From positions 1,118,138-1,182,137 of the forward strand of contig NW_015971543.1 in NCBI RefSeq assembly GCF_000182565.1: a stretch of DNA of 64,000 nt. The letters run 5' to 3'. Positions 8,672 to 17,883 of this stretch are shown here, in pieces. This DNA comes from Spizellomyces punctatus DAOM BR117. Its lineage: Eukaryota > Chytridiomycota > Chytridiomycetes > Spizellomycetales > Spizellomycetaceae. The notes below the pieces were generated by a model. The model had not been told where the DNA came from. It did no database searches and worked only from the letters and a program-made list of their open reading frames with translations. Both the position numbers and the translations under genes were made by a program. The first letter of the stretch is position 1, and every line of letters starts with the position of its first letter.

Positions 8672-11600
8672 CTAAAGCAAGCTAAAAAAAGTCGCCACGA
8701 TGGTCCCCAAGATCCCAAGCCATGCGCCGACTTTCACATTGGCAGCACCGCTGACGCGCGCCATTTGTATGCGGCTTTCATCACCCCTTTTCACCCTGAG
8801 GATGGACCACATGCCTTCCACGACGTGGGACCTGAGATTGCAATAGAGTGCAAATAAGAAACCCAGGAAATCATCAGCATGTAAATGAGCATTGTTGACG
8901 AGCTTACCTTAAATTACCCGCCCTCACAGCCCAATCTCCGACCTCCTCTGCCCGGAAAAGAAAAGTCTCGGTCCTACCAGGGTTGATGGCATTGTCGACA
9001 CCGGTCGCAACCGCACCGGCATTTTCCAGTTCAGAAAACACATGTCCATGTACATGCAACGAAATTGCTCTGGGTTTATCATTCGAAGCGACCATATGGA
9101 ACAATTGAAGTCTTCCCCGAGTTGCATGGAAAATGGGAGTGGGCGGATTGTCAGGTGTAAGCCACACTGGATCAAACGTAGGAGCCGACCTGTAATTGAG
9201 TCCTTTCTGGCCCTGATCTTCGGGATCGATTCCATTGGGACTACCGCTCAAGGGTGACCGGACAAGATGGCAAATTTGGTCAATGTCTTTGTCTATTTCC
9301 CCGGCCTCCGATGGCCATTTACCATCCTTGAAGCCGTTGTTGTTACGGATGTCGCACCATTCCTCGAGCCAAGGATTAGTGCTCAGCGGGAAGGTGTTGA
9401 TGACATTGTGGAGGTGATCTTTGGGATATTGAGACGCGTCTAGTCTTCCGTTGGCGGTGTCGTTCATCACGTCCACCTCGTTCAGTCGTGGGGGTGTTGG
9501 GTCAAAGTCGGCGACCGGTTTTTCGGGGTCACCGTCATGGAACAGTCGTAGACCTAAAATATCGGCAATTGTACTAATTAACAACTTTGAACCACAGTAT
9601 TTTCCATGCATCCGCAATGCGTACTCACCGTCTTGAAGCATAACAACATGCTCATCCATCTCAAATATCTCATCATCTTCCAAAGACGGATGGAATCCCA
9701 TTGCTCCGCCGGTAGCTTGGAACCTAAGATCTTGATCGTGGAATTGTGGAGCGTCAAATGTCCTCGTCAGTGTCGCCTCCGCTCCATACCAAGTGCTGGG
9801 AATCCAGCCTTCCTTCTCCACCAGCAGCGCGCCGATGAGACCGTGATGCCGATGGTTACGGAAGTCTGCTTGATCTTGCAATAGAATGGGGCTGCCGTAG
9901 AACTATATTTTGCACACCGTGTCAGCAAGACGCTTTAGAAAACAAATGCGACTGGGGCACACATACCTGGTCAGCAAACCATGTAAAAGCGCGCGTCTCA
10001 CCATTTGCAACGGTTTGATCCCCGTTTTTGCCCACTAAAAGAGGCCCGCATCAGAGGAGATGTTGACTCTATTAACGGGTAAACAGACATGGTATTTACC
10101 GTTCGTCCCGTCATTCACTCTGGTATCGAAGAGGACTATGTCGGCGTGAATAGAAACCCGCGGGGATACTTCGCGATAACTCCTCAAATCAACGGGAACT
10201 GTAGGATATAACGACTTAGGTCCCGACGATATGCGAGTTGCGGTCGGAAGTCAGCATACCTTCCGGTCGGTTGGGCTCAGCTTTTAGATCAGGGTTAATA
10301 TTGTTCGTCAACCAAACCGTAATCCATTCCCCTTCGATCGCCCGAATAACCAAAGGCTCCGGATTCTTATCCTTGTCCGTTTTCACCTCGATCCATTTTG
10401 TGGTCCCAGGTTCCTTATATGCCTCCAGTCGATAAATCAATCCAAAGGGATCAATTCGATTTTGCCCCAGAAAGCCTTCCGTATAATCAATGCGCCGGCT
10501 TTCGGCCACTACACGATATTCCCTATGCTTTTTAGGGTCCGGTTTCTGTTGGCTGGGCAGTTGCTTCGCGAAGGGTCTCGGATTCGAAGGTAAGGTAGGG
10601 AGGTTTGGTACTTCCTTGTCGTGCACTCTCAGAAGTGACCAGCATCCGAGCCAGGTATCGTCAATTGCACGCCAATAGAGCATCTAGTACAAAGGGGTCG
10701 GTAACCTTGAAAACAACACGGCAGGCGGTGCAATCACATCCTTCACGGCTTACATGATCTCCTGGAGAATATACAGGTTCAACGATCTTTGTGAAAGCTT
10801 TTGAAATTCCGAGAATCTGTTGCTGAACAAGTCGGCTATTAGGGTCGGTGAAGAGATCGTGCCAGCTAAGAACGGGAAGAGATCTTAGAACTGAAGAATA
10901 AGAATAGATACGACCGCATATGGCGTACCGTAAACCGTAAGCATTGAAGCTATGCGACTCCTCATGCGATCCCTGGCCGATACGCAACCTTATAGTATCG
11001 TTCGGATACGATTGGTAAACCGTCGTGGAGGGATCACCAAAGGGATCAGATGAAAACAAAATGCTCGGGTCAGGATCTCGTCCGTTATTCTTCCTACGGA
11101 ACTCCTTGATTCTTTCTCGGAGTGGTTCGCTCTTGTAGTTAACGAGCATGATACCCTGATCTTGGTCCGAGCCTGGGAAGTTAGGTGGGTTCAGCGGCAG
11201 TCCGTGTCTGTTGAAGGCTGGATGGAAGTCTGCGACGAATTGGACAACTTCGCGGTACCAATCGCCTTCTCTTGTTTTGATGGCTGCTTGGACGCCAGTA
11301 ACAATAGGTCGGTTGAGATTGTCGTTGGCAAACCAGGTGGCTCCTAAAGGAATGCAGGGAGATCAATTAATCCTTCCGCTCCCCCCAACTCTTGAGGAGG
11401 TAGAATTTGTGTCCTTACCAAAAGGCTGAACCAAGTTCAGTGCATACAACCCCTTCTTTTGCCGAAAATTAGCAAAGAGATGATCGTGAAAAAATACTAG
11501 GAAAAGCAACCTGACATTAGAAGAGTCCTCATACTACCAAAACACGACTCTGAATGCAGAAATGCTCACCATGACCAAACTCTTCATCAGCCCACCACCT

Positions 11601-14418
11601 ATGGATAAGGAATTTTCCAAAGCGAGGACCGCTCAGATAGTTCCATCCAACGGAAGCGCCATCAGAAACCAGGACATCGAATTTGACCAGGTGTACATGG
11701 ATGCCGACTTCGCCTTCGGTCGGATGCGCCGGGCAGTCGGGAAAGGGCGGATCAAAGGCATTCCCGGGAATAAAAGTATCGAATTTGTTTTTCAAAGTAT
11801 TTCTCAAGACGTCACCCTTGTTCGATCGCATGATGAAGGGATCGTAGGGTGTCGGGGTGTTGCGATCGCCGAATTCTTCTTCTTCCAGCTGATAGAGATG
11901 ACCTGAGGGGTCTGCGACGAGAGATAATAAGTACGCAAACAAAGTACTGAAAGCCATGTCAGTACACGTCTTCCGCACCATGCCAGCCAAATCTATTGAA
12001 CAGAATATTTCGGTTCAGAGCAGATATGTTGCGGGCCACTTCCCGTACAGGGATGCCCCTGTCCACAAAATTCTGTCTAGGTGTCGGAATGAGAGTGAAG
12101 GTGCTTCCAGGTTGCGGATCTCTGTTCATGGCGTTAACTTCCTTCTCGGTCGCAGGTCGGAAGTCCTGAAAATTATGGAAGAGGTGAATTGCGAGATTGG
12201 TTGTGAGATTGGTTTTTGAAAATGGATAAGATAACTTACGGATCCTTCCGGTATGGGACCCCACATTTCCGTAGGCCAAGGGACTCGCGGCGACTTCTGG
12301 TGAATTTTACCAGCAATGAAATTGGGAAATCCGGGGCGGTCAAGTGTGGGGTTTGGCGGGGCTTGACGGTCCGGTAGAACCCGCAGAGGCAGAATTTGCT
12401 TTCCGTTGGGATAGGTCAAACTGCCGTCTTGTAGAGTATCAAAGGTACGGAAAATGCCCCACATTCCAAGAGTAAAGTGCGGATACAACTAGAGGAAGAG
12501 ATATGTATAAGTTCAAGAGTTTAAGCACCGGGAAGATACAACATGACATACGTGGCAATGGAAGATCGCATCGCCGATACTTTTCTAAAATTCAGACAGA
12601 GAGAGAGAGGCATTAGAAAAAGGAAAATCAGCAAAAGGAATCATCTGGTTTTCAACACACCAGGCGGGATCCTGCACCATATAAGGCCGTAAAGGTCGTT
12701 GCCCATTGCGGGGACAATGAGAAGGAATCAATGATCGGACTGTCCACTTTGCCATCGACGGCATACCATTGATGGACTATAAGAGGCAAAGTACATGAAT
12801 AATACATCGAAGTACGTTGACGCCGAGAAAGCATAAAACAAACCATGCCAGTGAAAAACTAGCACAGCAAAGCCGTATTAGTTATGAATGTTTTTTCTTC
12901 AAGCGTTTGCGTAATACTAGCTTACCATGCGTCTCTCTAACACCACCATGGACAACGCGGAACTTTACAGGATCGCCAGCATAGTTGAAGAAAACAAGGC
13001 CAGGATCACCATGCATCCACGAAGAATGATGCTGTTCTTCGCCGTACACGGGTACTTCCAGAGTTCCAGCTTTAATGCGATCGAAGACATCGCTTTGACG
13101 ATTACGAAGTGGTTCGGAACGATAGTCTACGGTGAAGCAGACAAAAGATTAAGTAACCGAAAATATTGGACTGGGTAATCCCGGATGCTTACTGATTGCA
13201 TGCACGGCGTCTTCCTCTTTGGCATTAATTTGGGCGTGGTTCGTTACAAATTTGTTGGGACCGCATGGGCTTTCCGTCAGGGTACGACCAAATCGAATCT
13301 CAGGCTCATCGTGAAAGATTGTCACATGCTCCCGAAACGAAGCGGTGGGGTGGTGAAGTTCCGGTTCTTCGTCAAAGAAGTTTGCCTTGAAGTTCTCGAA
13401 TCCACTGGAGGAGTTATAAACTGTTAGAGAATGAAGTTGAGGCGCCTTGCCACTTTTGGTACTTACGGGGGTTTAGGGGGATGGATATCGGCAGTTAACC
13501 CATCACGAATGGGTTCCCCAGTATGCGGATCTGTCCACCTGGAACCGTAAGGCTCCACGATGAGAGCGCCAAACAGTCCATGCAAATTGGTGTCATTCTC
13601 CGTGCCTGGAAAAACAATGTGATTGTTCAATTGAGTAAGAATCCGATCCTAGAAGCAATCGCAGCCCTTAAGACGTACCTCCGAGATTTCCGGCATCGCC
13701 GATGTGGAATACCCCTTGGTGACTGCATTTCCAGTGGTAAGTATATTTACCGCCAGGAGGAGCCAAAGACGGTGGATTGCGGCCGACTAATAATAAGAAA
13801 GGGTCAGCACGGGCTGCTGAGCGGGGAATTTTGAAAGTACTTACCCGCAGATCCATCAGATTTAACATCATGTCCATCTAATGCCACATGCATCCCTACA
13901 GGATGCTTCCTGATTTTGTTCTCCAGCACGATGGTGACGGTATCATGCAAGTTGCAGCGGAGCACAAGTGGGCGGACGAGGGGATTGAGTTCGACCCGCG
14001 GTGCTTTTGCTGAGGGAATCAACGGATCCGGCGAAACGAACGAATGAGCGTAGCGTTCAAGAGCGTCCTCGTTTTCTATTAAACAAGCGCTATAAGTTTC
14101 GCAGAATTGTGACTGGAATACCGGACTAGCAAAATTACCTTTGAGAGCGAACATTAAACCATTCGGGTCATGATCCCCGTATACATTATAAACGATCGGA
14201 ACTTCCAAGGCAACCACATCTAACGTACGAGACAATGAGCTCTAACTTGCATCACTTGATAGGAGGCAAATCTCACCATAGTGGCGATTTTGGCGTTTGA
14301 CAGCTACGGTGAAGTCAAACGAATCTACATCGTGGCCATGGACAAAGGCCGGAACTGCGAGCAACAAAGTGCCAAGTGACAGGCACTTTACAGCATGAAA
14401 TGAAGCCCCAAAGAGCAT
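8672..14418 (-). CDS. Giant multidomain multicopper oxidase, MnxG/McoA-like, with signal peptide and C-terminal hydrophobic tail
   Basis: About twenty exons spread over 5.7 kb give a product I estimate at about 1,500 aa. The ATG at 14418 opens a signal peptide (CLSLGTLLLAVPAFVHG). Repeated cupredoxin-like blocks follow, with histidine motifs GMHVALDGHDV, HWKCSHQGVFH, HVFHWHVHQW, IFHCHLYPHF…GMWGIF, GIHVHLVKFDV, FRNHRHHGLIGALLVE and ISLHVHGHVF. It ends GDWAVRAGNLRSHVVEGMW plus a hydrophobic tail (GAWLGILGTIVATFF), which suggests a GPI signal or membrane anchor. Checked exons include 14418–14277, 14219–14139, 12858–12844 (15 nt) and 12584–12552 (33 nt). MnxG and McoA are bacterial multidomain oxidases of Mn(II). 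The substrate here (Mn, Fe or organic) is unknown. The family is well supported by the motif set; the closest subfamily is inference. Confidence 0.85.
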
Positions 14419-14533: not shown

Positions 14534-15217
14534 ACAGAGCACGATCGAGTGAAAGTAATCGTCTGATGTCTGTCGCAATCTGCATCCTACTCGGAAAGGC
14601 AACGATGCGCCTTGGAGCAAGGCTGAGGGCGAACCTAGGTGTATTCTGTAACGTCTTTTACTAAAAGCGAATGATGAGAAGCTGCGGCTCGCTGAGCTTG
14701 TCCTTTCAACCAGAAGATTACCACGAGGAGGGGGCAAAGAAATTGGTGGAAAATGAACGTAGCAACAAGTACGGACAGAGCACGATCGAGTGAAAGTAAT
14801 CGTTTGATGTCTGTCGCAAATCTGCATCCTACTCGGAAAGGCAACGATGCGCCTTGGAGCAAGGCTGAGGGCGAACCTAGGTGTATTCTGCAACGTCTTT
14901 TACCAAAAGCGAAGATGAGAGGCTGTCCTTTCAACCAGAAGATTACCACGAGGAGGGGGCAAAGAAATTGGTGGAAAACGAACGTAGCAACAAGTACGGA
15001 CAGAGCACAATCGAGTGAAAGTAATCGTTTGATGTCTGTCGCAAATCTGCATCCTACTCGGAAAGGCAACGATGCGCCTTGGAGGGCGAACCTAGGTGTA
15101 TTCTGCAACGTCTTTTACCAAAAGCGAAGATGAGAGTCTGACCTTTGAACCAGAAGATTACCTACCACGAGGAGCGGGCAAAGAAATTGGTGGAAAACGA
15201 AGTAGCAACAAGTACGG
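14534..15217. repeat. Tandem repeat, about three copies of a 217–241 bp unit
   Basis: Near-identical units begin at 14534, 14775 and 15000, each starting ACAGAGCACGATCGAGTGAA (one base changed in copy 3). They end after a shared AGCAACAAGTACGG-type stretch. Copy 1 has an extra segment (GCTGCGGCTCGCTGAGCTTG area) missing from later copies, and copy 3 lacks about ten bases in its middle. The array lies just upstream of the oxidase start and creates overlapping repetitive open frames on both strands that should not be taken as genes. Confidence 0.93.
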
Positions 15218-16042: not shown

Positions 16043-17883
16043 ATGAGACCACCGTCATCCAGCCCCGGAACGCTTCCCGCAAGGCCGCTGCAACAACCGG
16101 CATTTTCCAAGTAAGTATACTCGTATGTTCACCAGTTTGAATCGGATACTACGGATTTTCCCCGAAAGGTCTGCTGCCCTCTCTGCATGGAATTGGCCCA
16201 GAGGAATGCACACCAAGATTGCCAGAGTGAAGAAAGTGGATACACGCACCCACCAGCTTTTGGATGAGCATGGTCGGACCCGTTTTTTTCGCGGTGTCAA
16301 CGTCGTGTTCAAAAGGCCGCCTTGGCATCCAGTTCTGGACCGGTTTGACGCCGTCACGTCGTTCGCCGAGGAAGATGCTCGTCTGCTTTCGAGTCTCAAT
16401 ATAAATAGTATCCGTTTAGGTGTGCACTGGGCGGGTGTTGAGCCTACTCGTGGTGAATATTCGTCAACTTATATTGCTGCCATCCGCCAAATTGTACAAA
16501 CGTGTGCTCGTTATGGAATATATGTGCTATTGGAGTTCCATCAGGATGTACTAGCTCCTCAATTTCGGGGCCATGGGGTTCCAGATTGGTTTGTGAATGA
16601 GGACTGGCTAAGTGGATGGAAGAAATGGCTGCGATTTCCGGTACCGAATAGATTCATACCTGCTCGAAGAGATGCGGACGGTATGCCACTGGAGGACGAC
16701 TGCAAAGGACTAACTTGGTACTTGCGTGAGTACACTTACTCTGGCTCTTTGATAGTTCATGTTCGTCAAACTAACGTAGTATCCCATTGGTGGGTTGTGG
16801 TGGAAAGTGTATTTCACCTATGCTGTTGCTGATGCATTTGGACGATGTAAGGTTGTGGCGGTTGCTACTTGACGGAGCGGCCCAATGAAGTGATCCAACT
16901 CTGCTCTAGTATACAACAACCATGACGGCCTCCTAGACGCATTTGCTGGCTATTGGCAGCATGTGGTTGAAGAATTTAAAACCGAGGCAAACATTTTAGG
17001 TTACGAGATCATGAATGAGCCATGGTAAATTGATGACATTTCTTGCTTGTGATGGATTCGTCGCTCATGCCTTCAGTCGATCACCTCTGCAAGGCCCGGA
17101 AATCATTGGAAGAATCCGTTGCTCCTCCTTCCTGGTTATGCAAGCGGAACTACACTCCATACCATGCACACCCATGTCGCACAGGGGATCCGCCGAGCAG
17201 ACCCTAATGCCATCATTTATTTTGAAGGTGCAACGTGGGATGTAACAACGAAAGCGCCATGTGTGCCAGGAGGCATCGAGTATGCGGATCGTTCTGTATT
17301 GAGTTATCATTTCTATCGCCCTCCCCAACGAACAGACATTGATACCTACATGAAACGTCGAAAAGCCGATGCTGTAAAGCTTGGTGGGTGCGGCCTCTTC
17401 ATGACGGAATGGGAGATGTGGTACGGTAACGGGAGCGACAAGCGATTTCAGGAGATGTGGGATACTGTTACCGCCGCCGATCGACATCACCAAAATTGGA
17501 TGGGGTGGGCATATAAATCCTTCGCACAAGGTAAAGGCAGTACAGATGGATCACTATTTGACGATGAGACGGGTAATAGGCGGCGGCAATTTGAGGAGCT
17601 GTGGAGTAGAACATTTCCTACCGCAGTAAGCGGCAACGTGATTACAATGAAGTTTGAAAGAGATACTGGAAGATTTGAACTCGCATTCGAGTTCAAAGCC
17701 TCCGTCAAAGAGCCGACAGAGATTGGCATTTCGGCAGAGATATGGTATCCTCAAGGGTACCGAGTGGAAATCACACCAGTGGGAGTAGCTCTTTGGCATG
17801 GAGACGCAAGAACTATTGTGTTAGATATAGACAGGAGCACTGCAAATGGAACCCAGATAAACGTGGTGATTGAGCGCCAATGA
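16043..17883 (+). CDS. GH5 glycoside hydrolase, endoglycoceramidase/EGCrP-like
   Basis: This is a (beta/alpha)8 retaining hydrolase resembling fungal endoglycoceramidase-related glucosylceramidases, which cleave glucose from glucosylceramide or sterol glucosides. Five exons are proposed: 16043–16110, 16169–16725, 16808–16846, 16910–17024 and 17094–17883. All phases match. The strong GTAAGTAT donor at 16111 argues for the short 5' exon over a start at 16125. Family motifs are FFRGVNVVFK, SIRLGVHWAGVEP, LLEFHQDVLAPQF, the acid/base Glu in EIMNEPW, and the nucleophile Glu in LFMTEWEMW. A C-terminal beta-sandwich-like region follows. There is no clear signal peptide, so an intracellular enzyme is likely. 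The exact substrate is inferred from the family. Confidence 0.9.

What the first reader, a model, noticed from the sequence alone, without database searches (positions are those of the whole stretch)
8672..14418. Giant MnxG/McoA-like multicopper oxidase in a fungal genome
Multidomain oxidases with this histidine-motif set (HVFHWHVHQW, IFHCHLYPHF…GMWGIF, GIHVHLVKFDV, ISLHVHGHVF, and the GDW…RSHVVEGMW end) are best known from bacterial Mn(II) oxidation. Normal fungal laccases and ferroxidases have three cupredoxin domains and about 500–600 aa. This one is about 1,500 aa with about twenty introns, a signal peptide and a hydrophobic C-terminal tail. It could be an ancient eukaryotic family or an old bacterial acquisition that gained introns. 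A surface-anchored manganese or iron oxidase in a chytrid-like fungus would be notable.
Basis: partly seen in the sequence, partly recalled or inferred. Interest (0 to 1): 0.85.

Follow-up and report, generated by a model that had tools for sequence, protein, structure and literature searches.

The report
MnxG-type giant copper oxidase in fungus
A chytrid fungus carries an intron-rich gene for a giant copper enzyme of the type some bacteria use to oxidise manganese, apparently taken from bacteria early in fungal history; its substrate is still unknown.

The parts
8672..14418 (-). Six-domain MnxG-type multicopper oxidase gene, 22 exons, 1443 aa (SPPG_09220 locus)
   Evidence: DP splice model; P0001 identical over 1175 columns but for one gap; P0002 69% over 1387 columns
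14335..14418 (-). N-terminal signal-peptide-like stretch (about aa 1-28)
   Evidence: hydropathy windows starting at aa 7-9 among the highest; pLDDT under 50 for aa 1-28; no signal-peptide predictor available
13017..13043 (-). Family signature GEEQHHSSW (aa 333-341), role unknown
   Evidence: E334, H337, H338, S339, W341 invariant in A3, 77 sequences; SEEVHHDSW in MnxG; position
12766..12932 (-). THVFHWHVHQW (aa 370-380), coding split by two introns: T1 His371, T2 His374, T3 His376 of domain 2
   Evidence: His in 77 of 77 rows at each; coordinates; ligand roles from the canonical HxxHxH motif (recalled)
12462..12560 (-). HCHLYPHFTLGM (aa 424-435): T3 His424 and His426, T1 Cys425 and His430, axial Met435 of domain 2
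   Evidence: 77 of 77 rows at each; coordinates; roles from the canonical HCHxxxHxxxxM motif (recalled)
11676..11705 (-). GIHVHLVKFD (aa 641-650): T2 His643, T3 His645 of domain 3
   Evidence: 77 of 77 rows; coordinates
11468..11494 (-). FFHDHLFAN (aa 687-695): T3 His689 and His691 of domain 3
   Evidence: 76 of 77 rows, one gap in P0006
8672..9553 (-). Last two exons (domain 6 and tail), absent from the public protein
   Evidence: public end VQLPIF-stop is reproduced by an acceptor 20 nt upstream; P0002 continues through these exons; weak match to MnxG 1065-1211, 23 bits
8675..8731 (-). C-terminal hydrophobic tail, GPI-signal-like (aa 1425-1443)
   Evidence: highest 19-residue hydropathy window of the protein, 1.97; no GPI predictor available
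14577..15138 (.). Three direct-repeat copies (spacing 242 and 225 bp) in the 5' flank

Best explanation
The gene encodes a secreted, probably membrane-anchored, six-cupredoxin MnxG-type multicopper oxidase derived from a bacterial gene that entered an early fungal lineage and later gained introns. Mechanism, inferred from the ligand set: one-electron oxidation of an extracellular reduced substrate at the type 1 copper of domain 2, electron transfer through the His-Cys-His link to the trinuclear cluster between domains 2 and 3, and four-electron reduction of O2 to water. The substrate is most likely a metal ion, Mn(II) the leading candidate and Fe(II) second. Shown here: gene structure (without RNA), family, ligand set, predicted fold of domains 1-5, fungal monophyly in the sampled trees. 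Inferred: secretion, anchoring, catalysis, substrate, direction and date of transfer.
For: Bacillus MnxG is the only strong solved relative by sequence. Model of P0001: pLDDT 88.2, pTM 0.86; Foldseek and VIA-align both rank 9bxa first by a wide margin. Of 12 ligand positions, 10 are kept in 77 of 77 aligned sequences and 2 in 76 of 77 with one gap. A T1 site in D2 only and a cluster in D2/D3 are reported for the bacterial six-domain MCOs analysed in PMC3600357 (section 5 read). Fungi are 14 of 14 in one clade at 100/99 among bacteria with a haloarchaeal outgroup, 13 of 13 at 100/99, and 12 of 12 at 100/100 without the long rows. A scan of prokaryote species genomes confirmed 587 loci encoding relatives. 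A separate Fet3-like MCO lies beside the one FTR1 match of the same genome.
Against: No activity or expression data. MnxG needs MnxE and MnxF for activity (PMC5622069, passages seen); one MnxF-like and one MnxE-like query found nothing in this genome, but that negative has no positive control. The relatives nearest the fungal clade are uncharacterised as far as I saw; 'manganese oxidase' among their names is a source's own label. The only solved six-domain relative of this type found is MnxG. Fox1-type ferroxidases share the D2/D3 cluster and were not compared here. The donor is unresolved, and fungus-to-fungus transfer to Basidiobolus is possible.
Confidence: 0.72

Rival explanations
1. It is a ferroxidase: same fold and copper path, but Fe(II) is the physiological substrate, for iron handling at the cell surface.
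Against: The genome has a Fet3-like MCO next to its one FTR1 match, and the MnxG-type gene is on another contig; ceruloplasmin does not appear by sequence at E up to 1.
Confidence: 0.25
2. It oxidises small organic substrates or Cu(I), as a laccase-like or copper-tolerance enzyme.
For: Two-domain laccases are the best partial folds; one bacterial relative on a Microvirga plasmid lies near a CusA/CzcA-type heavy-metal efflux gene, a single case.
Against: The closest characterised full-length relative is a metal oxidase; no copper-handling family was seen in the 10 of 62 long open frames of the window that I tested with Pfam, all in its first 31.5 kb.
Confidence: 0.2
3. The family was inherited vertically from the eukaryote ancestor and lost almost everywhere, rather than transferred.
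For: Fungal rows form one clade with deep internal splits (chytrid A type, B type, Basidiobolus), consistent with age; PMC3600357 argues for common ancestry of six-domain proteins rather than sporadic transfer.
Confidence: 0.1
4. The functional product is the 1180-aa public form without domain 6, or the locus is decaying.
For: The public protein SPPG_09220 ends at VQLPIF through another acceptor; whether RNA supports that model is not known to me.
Against: The exons after that point are open and align with Powellomyces through aa 1405; the C-terminal region is also present in the bacterial relatives aligned.
Confidence: 0.06

Closest known systems
MnxG of Bacillus sp. PL-12 (PDB 9bxa, 'Mnx H340A complex')
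   Same: Six cupredoxin domains; T1 in D2 and cluster in D2/D3; 39% identity over 999 structurally aligned residues
   Different: Bacterial; works as a complex with MnxE and MnxF (PMC5622069, passages); belongs to a separate Bacillota clade. Ala340 of 9bxa is the engineered H340A of the entry title
Bacterial 'multicopper oxidase domain-containing' proteins of Actinomycetota, Cyanobacteriota, Pseudomonadota, Bacteroidota and others
   Same: Sister to the fungal clade; identity 35-45% in the listing; same ligands
   Different: No introns; the termini of the fungal proteins differ; function not known to me
Chlamydomonas Fox1 and ceruloplasmin/hephaestin
   Same: Six-domain MCOs; Chlamydomonas and Dunaliella ferroxidases have the cluster in D2/D3 (PMC3600357)
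   Different: Ceruloplasmin: cluster between D1 and D6 and further T1 sites (PMC3600357); not matched by sequence at E up to 1. Fox1 was not compared here
Fungal Fet3 and laccases
   Same: Same copper chemistry and HxxHxH/HCH motifs (recalled)
   Different: Three domains; this genome has a separate Fet3-like gene beside FTR1

Membership tests
MnxG-type six-domain multicopper oxidases (broad family) | Six cupredoxin domains in one chain | tested here: met
   Model of P0001 (D1-D5) aligns to 9bxa 1-1076; D6 by sequence only: aligns with P0002 and weakly (23 bits) with 9bxa 1065-1211
MnxG-type six-domain multicopper oxidases (broad family) | T1 copper site only in D2, trinuclear cluster ligands in D2 and D3 | tested here: met
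   12 ligands in place; only one HCH, at aa 424. Distances not measured
MnxG-type six-domain multicopper oxidases (broad family) | Groups with the bacterial family in a tree | tested here: met
MnxG in the strict sense (Mn oxidase of the mnx operon) | Falls in the MnxG clade | tested here: not met
   MnxG groups with Bacillota loci, 100/98 with Domibacillus L059; fungi elsewhere
MnxG in the strict sense (Mn oxidase of the mnx operon) | NCBIfam NF041487 cut-off (3100 bits) | tested here: not met
   204.6 bits; the model has 1894 positions, so it may describe a longer relative than the 1217-1227 aa Bacillus protein
MnxG in the strict sense (Mn oxidase of the mnx operon) | MnxE and MnxF partners | tested here: inconclusive
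   no match in G000 for one MnxF-like and one MnxE-like query chosen by their place upstream of bacterial mnxG relatives; no positive control
MnxG in the strict sense (Mn oxidase of the mnx operon) | Oxidises Mn(II) | not testable with these tools
   needs biochemistry
Ceruloplasmin/hephaestin | Trinuclear cluster between D1 and D6 with T1 in D6 | tested here: not met
   only one HCH in the protein, in D2; D6 has GDWAVRAGNLRSHVVEGMW at that place
Fungal laccase/Fet3 (three-domain MCO) | Three cupredoxin domains, about 500-600 aa | tested here: not met
   1443 aa; fold like 9bxa over 999 residues
Fungal laccase/Fet3 (three-domain MCO) | Fet3 gene paired with FTR1 | tested here: not met
   the one FTR1 match is on C9 beside another MCO; this gene is on C7

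The most novel reading that the evidence does not exclude
A bacterial MnxG-type manganese oxidase entered the common ancestor of chytrids and Basidiobolus, split into A and B types, gained some twenty introns and surface anchors, and works without MnxE/MnxF, giving early-diverging fungi an enzyme that makes Mn(III/IV) oxide at the cell surface.
Probability: 0.22. Interest if true: 0.82.

Novelty: new member of a known kind. Interest (0 to 1): 0.6.

Why it matters
The paper I found on six-domain copper proteins states that eukaryotes have only three-domain forms (yeast, higher plants) or six-domain forms (animals, green algae), with MnxG relatives in bacteria and archaea (PMC3600357). A fungal MnxG-type clade widens that map. 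It also offers a testable candidate for manganese oxidation in fungi by an enzyme other than laccase or Mn-peroxidase. If it is active without MnxE/F, it could be a simpler system for MnxG chemistry.

Tried and rejected
Single-exon Pfam scans were nearly blank: 8 pieces, 2 weak hits below cut-off. The full protein passes Pfam cut-offs for Cu-oxidase_3 (27.3 vs 21) and Cu-oxidase_2 (24.9 vs 20.4). Bacterial contamination was rejected: 21 introns, GC near 0.48 like its surroundings, and neighbours with Paf67, anamorsin and cyt-4 winged-helix domains.

A lost T1 histidine in MnxG, suggested by Ala340 of 9bxa, was rejected: the entry is the H340A construct. The His is kept in 215 of 215 held homologues (135 proteins and 80 locus frames); this count is biased for the 80 loci, which were found partly with the HCHLYPHF pattern and whose frames I picked by the string HCHLYP.

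Long-branch trouble with the B-type row was checked by removing it and by adding a second B-type row; the fungal clade stayed. In one search the program warned that the Rubrobacter row and the haloarchaeal rows are long branches that meet; searches left Rubrobacter out. The B-type Borealophlyctis record P0136 is partial, and my patterns for the two D2 copper motifs did not match it. The listing cap (120 of 2681, 2463 and 1000 hits) means other eukaryotic members may be missed. Locus L107 was fetched but not used. Tandem Repeats Finder did not list the 5' repeats that the repeat finder showed. Intron positions could not be compared with other chytrids (no DNA held). The middle of the six-frame printout was cut; the splice model comes.

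Literature: nine searches of a CC-licensed PMC library listed no paper whose title or abstract start describes an MnxG-type protein in fungi. Of those listed I opened five: PMC3600357 (outline, passages, section 5), PMC5622069, PMC11291939, PMC7594830 and PMC7466969 (passages only). PMC11291939, on gene transfer in 44 early-diverging fungi, names S. punctatus once, for a trypsin, and has no 'copper' or 'oxidase'. PMC7594830 required IPR001117 among three domains, which would probably miss this family (inference). PMC7466969 has no 'copper' or 'oxidase'.
Full report
Observation. The minus strand of 8672-14418 carries one open spliced frame. A dynamic-programming splice model gives 22 exons and 21 GT..AG introns of 57-76 bp, encoding 1443 aa. 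A database search returned the Spizellomyces punctatus protein SPPG_09220 (P0001; 81% of my model covered), which aligns over 1175 columns with no mismatch and one 1-residue gap at an exon junction. So the window is S. punctatus or very near it. The public protein stops after 1180 aa; an acceptor 20 nt upstream of mine reproduces its end, VQLPIF-stop. Powellomyces hirtus P0002 (69% identity) continues through my last two exons to aa 1405, so I take the longer form as the main product. RNA evidence was not available.

Copper sites. Ligand roles are assigned from the canonical motifs (recalled): T1 His371, Cys425, His430, Met435; T2 His374, His643; T3 His376, His424, His426, His645, His689, His691. 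Ten positions are kept in 77 of 77 rows; His689 and His691 in 76 of 77, with one gap in the Fimicolochytrium protein P0006. The protein has only one HCH. A T1 site in D2 only and a cluster in D2/D3 is what Vasin et al. report for the bacterial six-domain enzymes they analysed, and they place the Chlamydomonas and Dunaliella ferroxidase cluster there too (PMC3600357, section 5 read). Hence the architecture fits the bacterial type, but by itself does not separate Mn from Fe oxidation.

Phylogeny. Trees used 804 columns of D1-D4, and rows were chosen by hand; 69 rows (13 fungi, 28 of the other 122 held proteins, 27 of 80 genome loci, MnxG); 47 rows (13 fungi, 17 proteins, 12 loci, MnxG, and four plasmid-borne rows: two haloarchaea, Rubrobacter, Microvirga); 45 rows, without Rubrobacter and the long Fimicolochytrium B row; 50 rows, with a second B-type fungal protein and three more bacterial ones, without Rubrobacter. 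In all four the fungi are one clade: SH-aLRT 98; bootstrap/SH-aLRT 100/99, 100/100 and 100/99. With the haloarchaeal root the fungi sit beside a clade with Actinomycetota, Cyanobacteriota, Pseudomonadota, Bacteroidota and others, with another Actinomycetota clade and then Bacillota (including MnxG) outside. The donor is not resolved.

Distribution. Fungal members seen: S. punctatus, Powellomyces hirtus, Fimicolochytrium jonesii (A and B types), Rhizophlyctis rosea (two records), Borealophlyctis nickersoniae (A and a partial B), Basidiobolus meristosporus (three) and B. ranarum (three) (lineages). Basidiobolus groups with the A type, so A and B diverged before that split, unless Basidiobolus received its copy from a chytrid. 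The lists are capped at 120 and most entries carry no name, so absence elsewhere in eukaryotes is not shown. A scan of the prokaryote species collection confirmed 587 of 594 pattern matches as relatives; 80 were kept.

Genome context. In the own-genome searches 16 of 16 matches to P0002 and 12 of 12 to P0020 fall in this locus, so a second copy was not seen; the tool calls its counts lower bounds. Elsewhere a Fet3-like MCO (best match Fet3, E 2e-38) lies divergently beside the one FTR1 match, and a third MCO lies near the start of C1. Iron uptake therefore seems to have its own standard pair. MnxE- and MnxF-like queries found nothing, which is weak evidence. Ten of the 62 open frames of at least 130 aa in the window were tested with Pfam (count): seven had hits (Paf67, CASTOR/ACT, two pieces of a GH5 glycosidase, RNase II-type, thiolase, anamorsin), none metal-oxidation related; the right half of the window was not tested.

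Termini. The S. punctatus protein has an N-terminal signal-like stretch and a C-terminal hydrophobic tail reaching the last residue. The Rhizophlyctis and Borealophlyctis A-type proteins instead have a strong N-terminal hydrophobic stretch (2.46-2.91) and no C-terminal one; Fimicolochytrium B has a C-terminal one (1.93). Different termini on a conserved catalytic body suggest cell-surface function (inference).

Mechanism and verdict. The ligand set is complete and conserved, so an O2-reducing multicopper oxidase is the expected activity. Mn(II) is favoured by the nearest characterised relative, with Fe(II) next; neither is shown. The finding is a new fungal branch of a known bacterial kind. 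The held literature searched did not show a description of it.

Noticed in passing
window 14577-15138: Three direct-repeat copies spaced 242 and 225 bp in the 5' flank of the oxidase gene, just upstream of its start; the third copy is shifted by a deletion.
   Followed up: partly
G000 C9:1010500-1015500 (L117): Fet3-like multicopper oxidase divergently beside FTR1, a standard reductive iron-uptake pair in this chytrid.
   Followed up: partly
G000 C1:2800-6500 (L118): A third multicopper oxidase, about 4 kb from the start of contig C1.
   Followed up: no
window 16047-17880: GH5 family glycosidase with a GH5 C-terminal domain on the plus strand, divergent from the oxidase gene.
   Followed up: no
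window 9554-9573: The public model of SPPG_09220 appears truncated by choice of an acceptor 20 nt upstream.
   Followed up: yes
P0020 and P0136: A second, B-type fungal copy in Fimicolochytrium and Borealophlyctis; none was seen in S. punctatus.
   Followed up: partly
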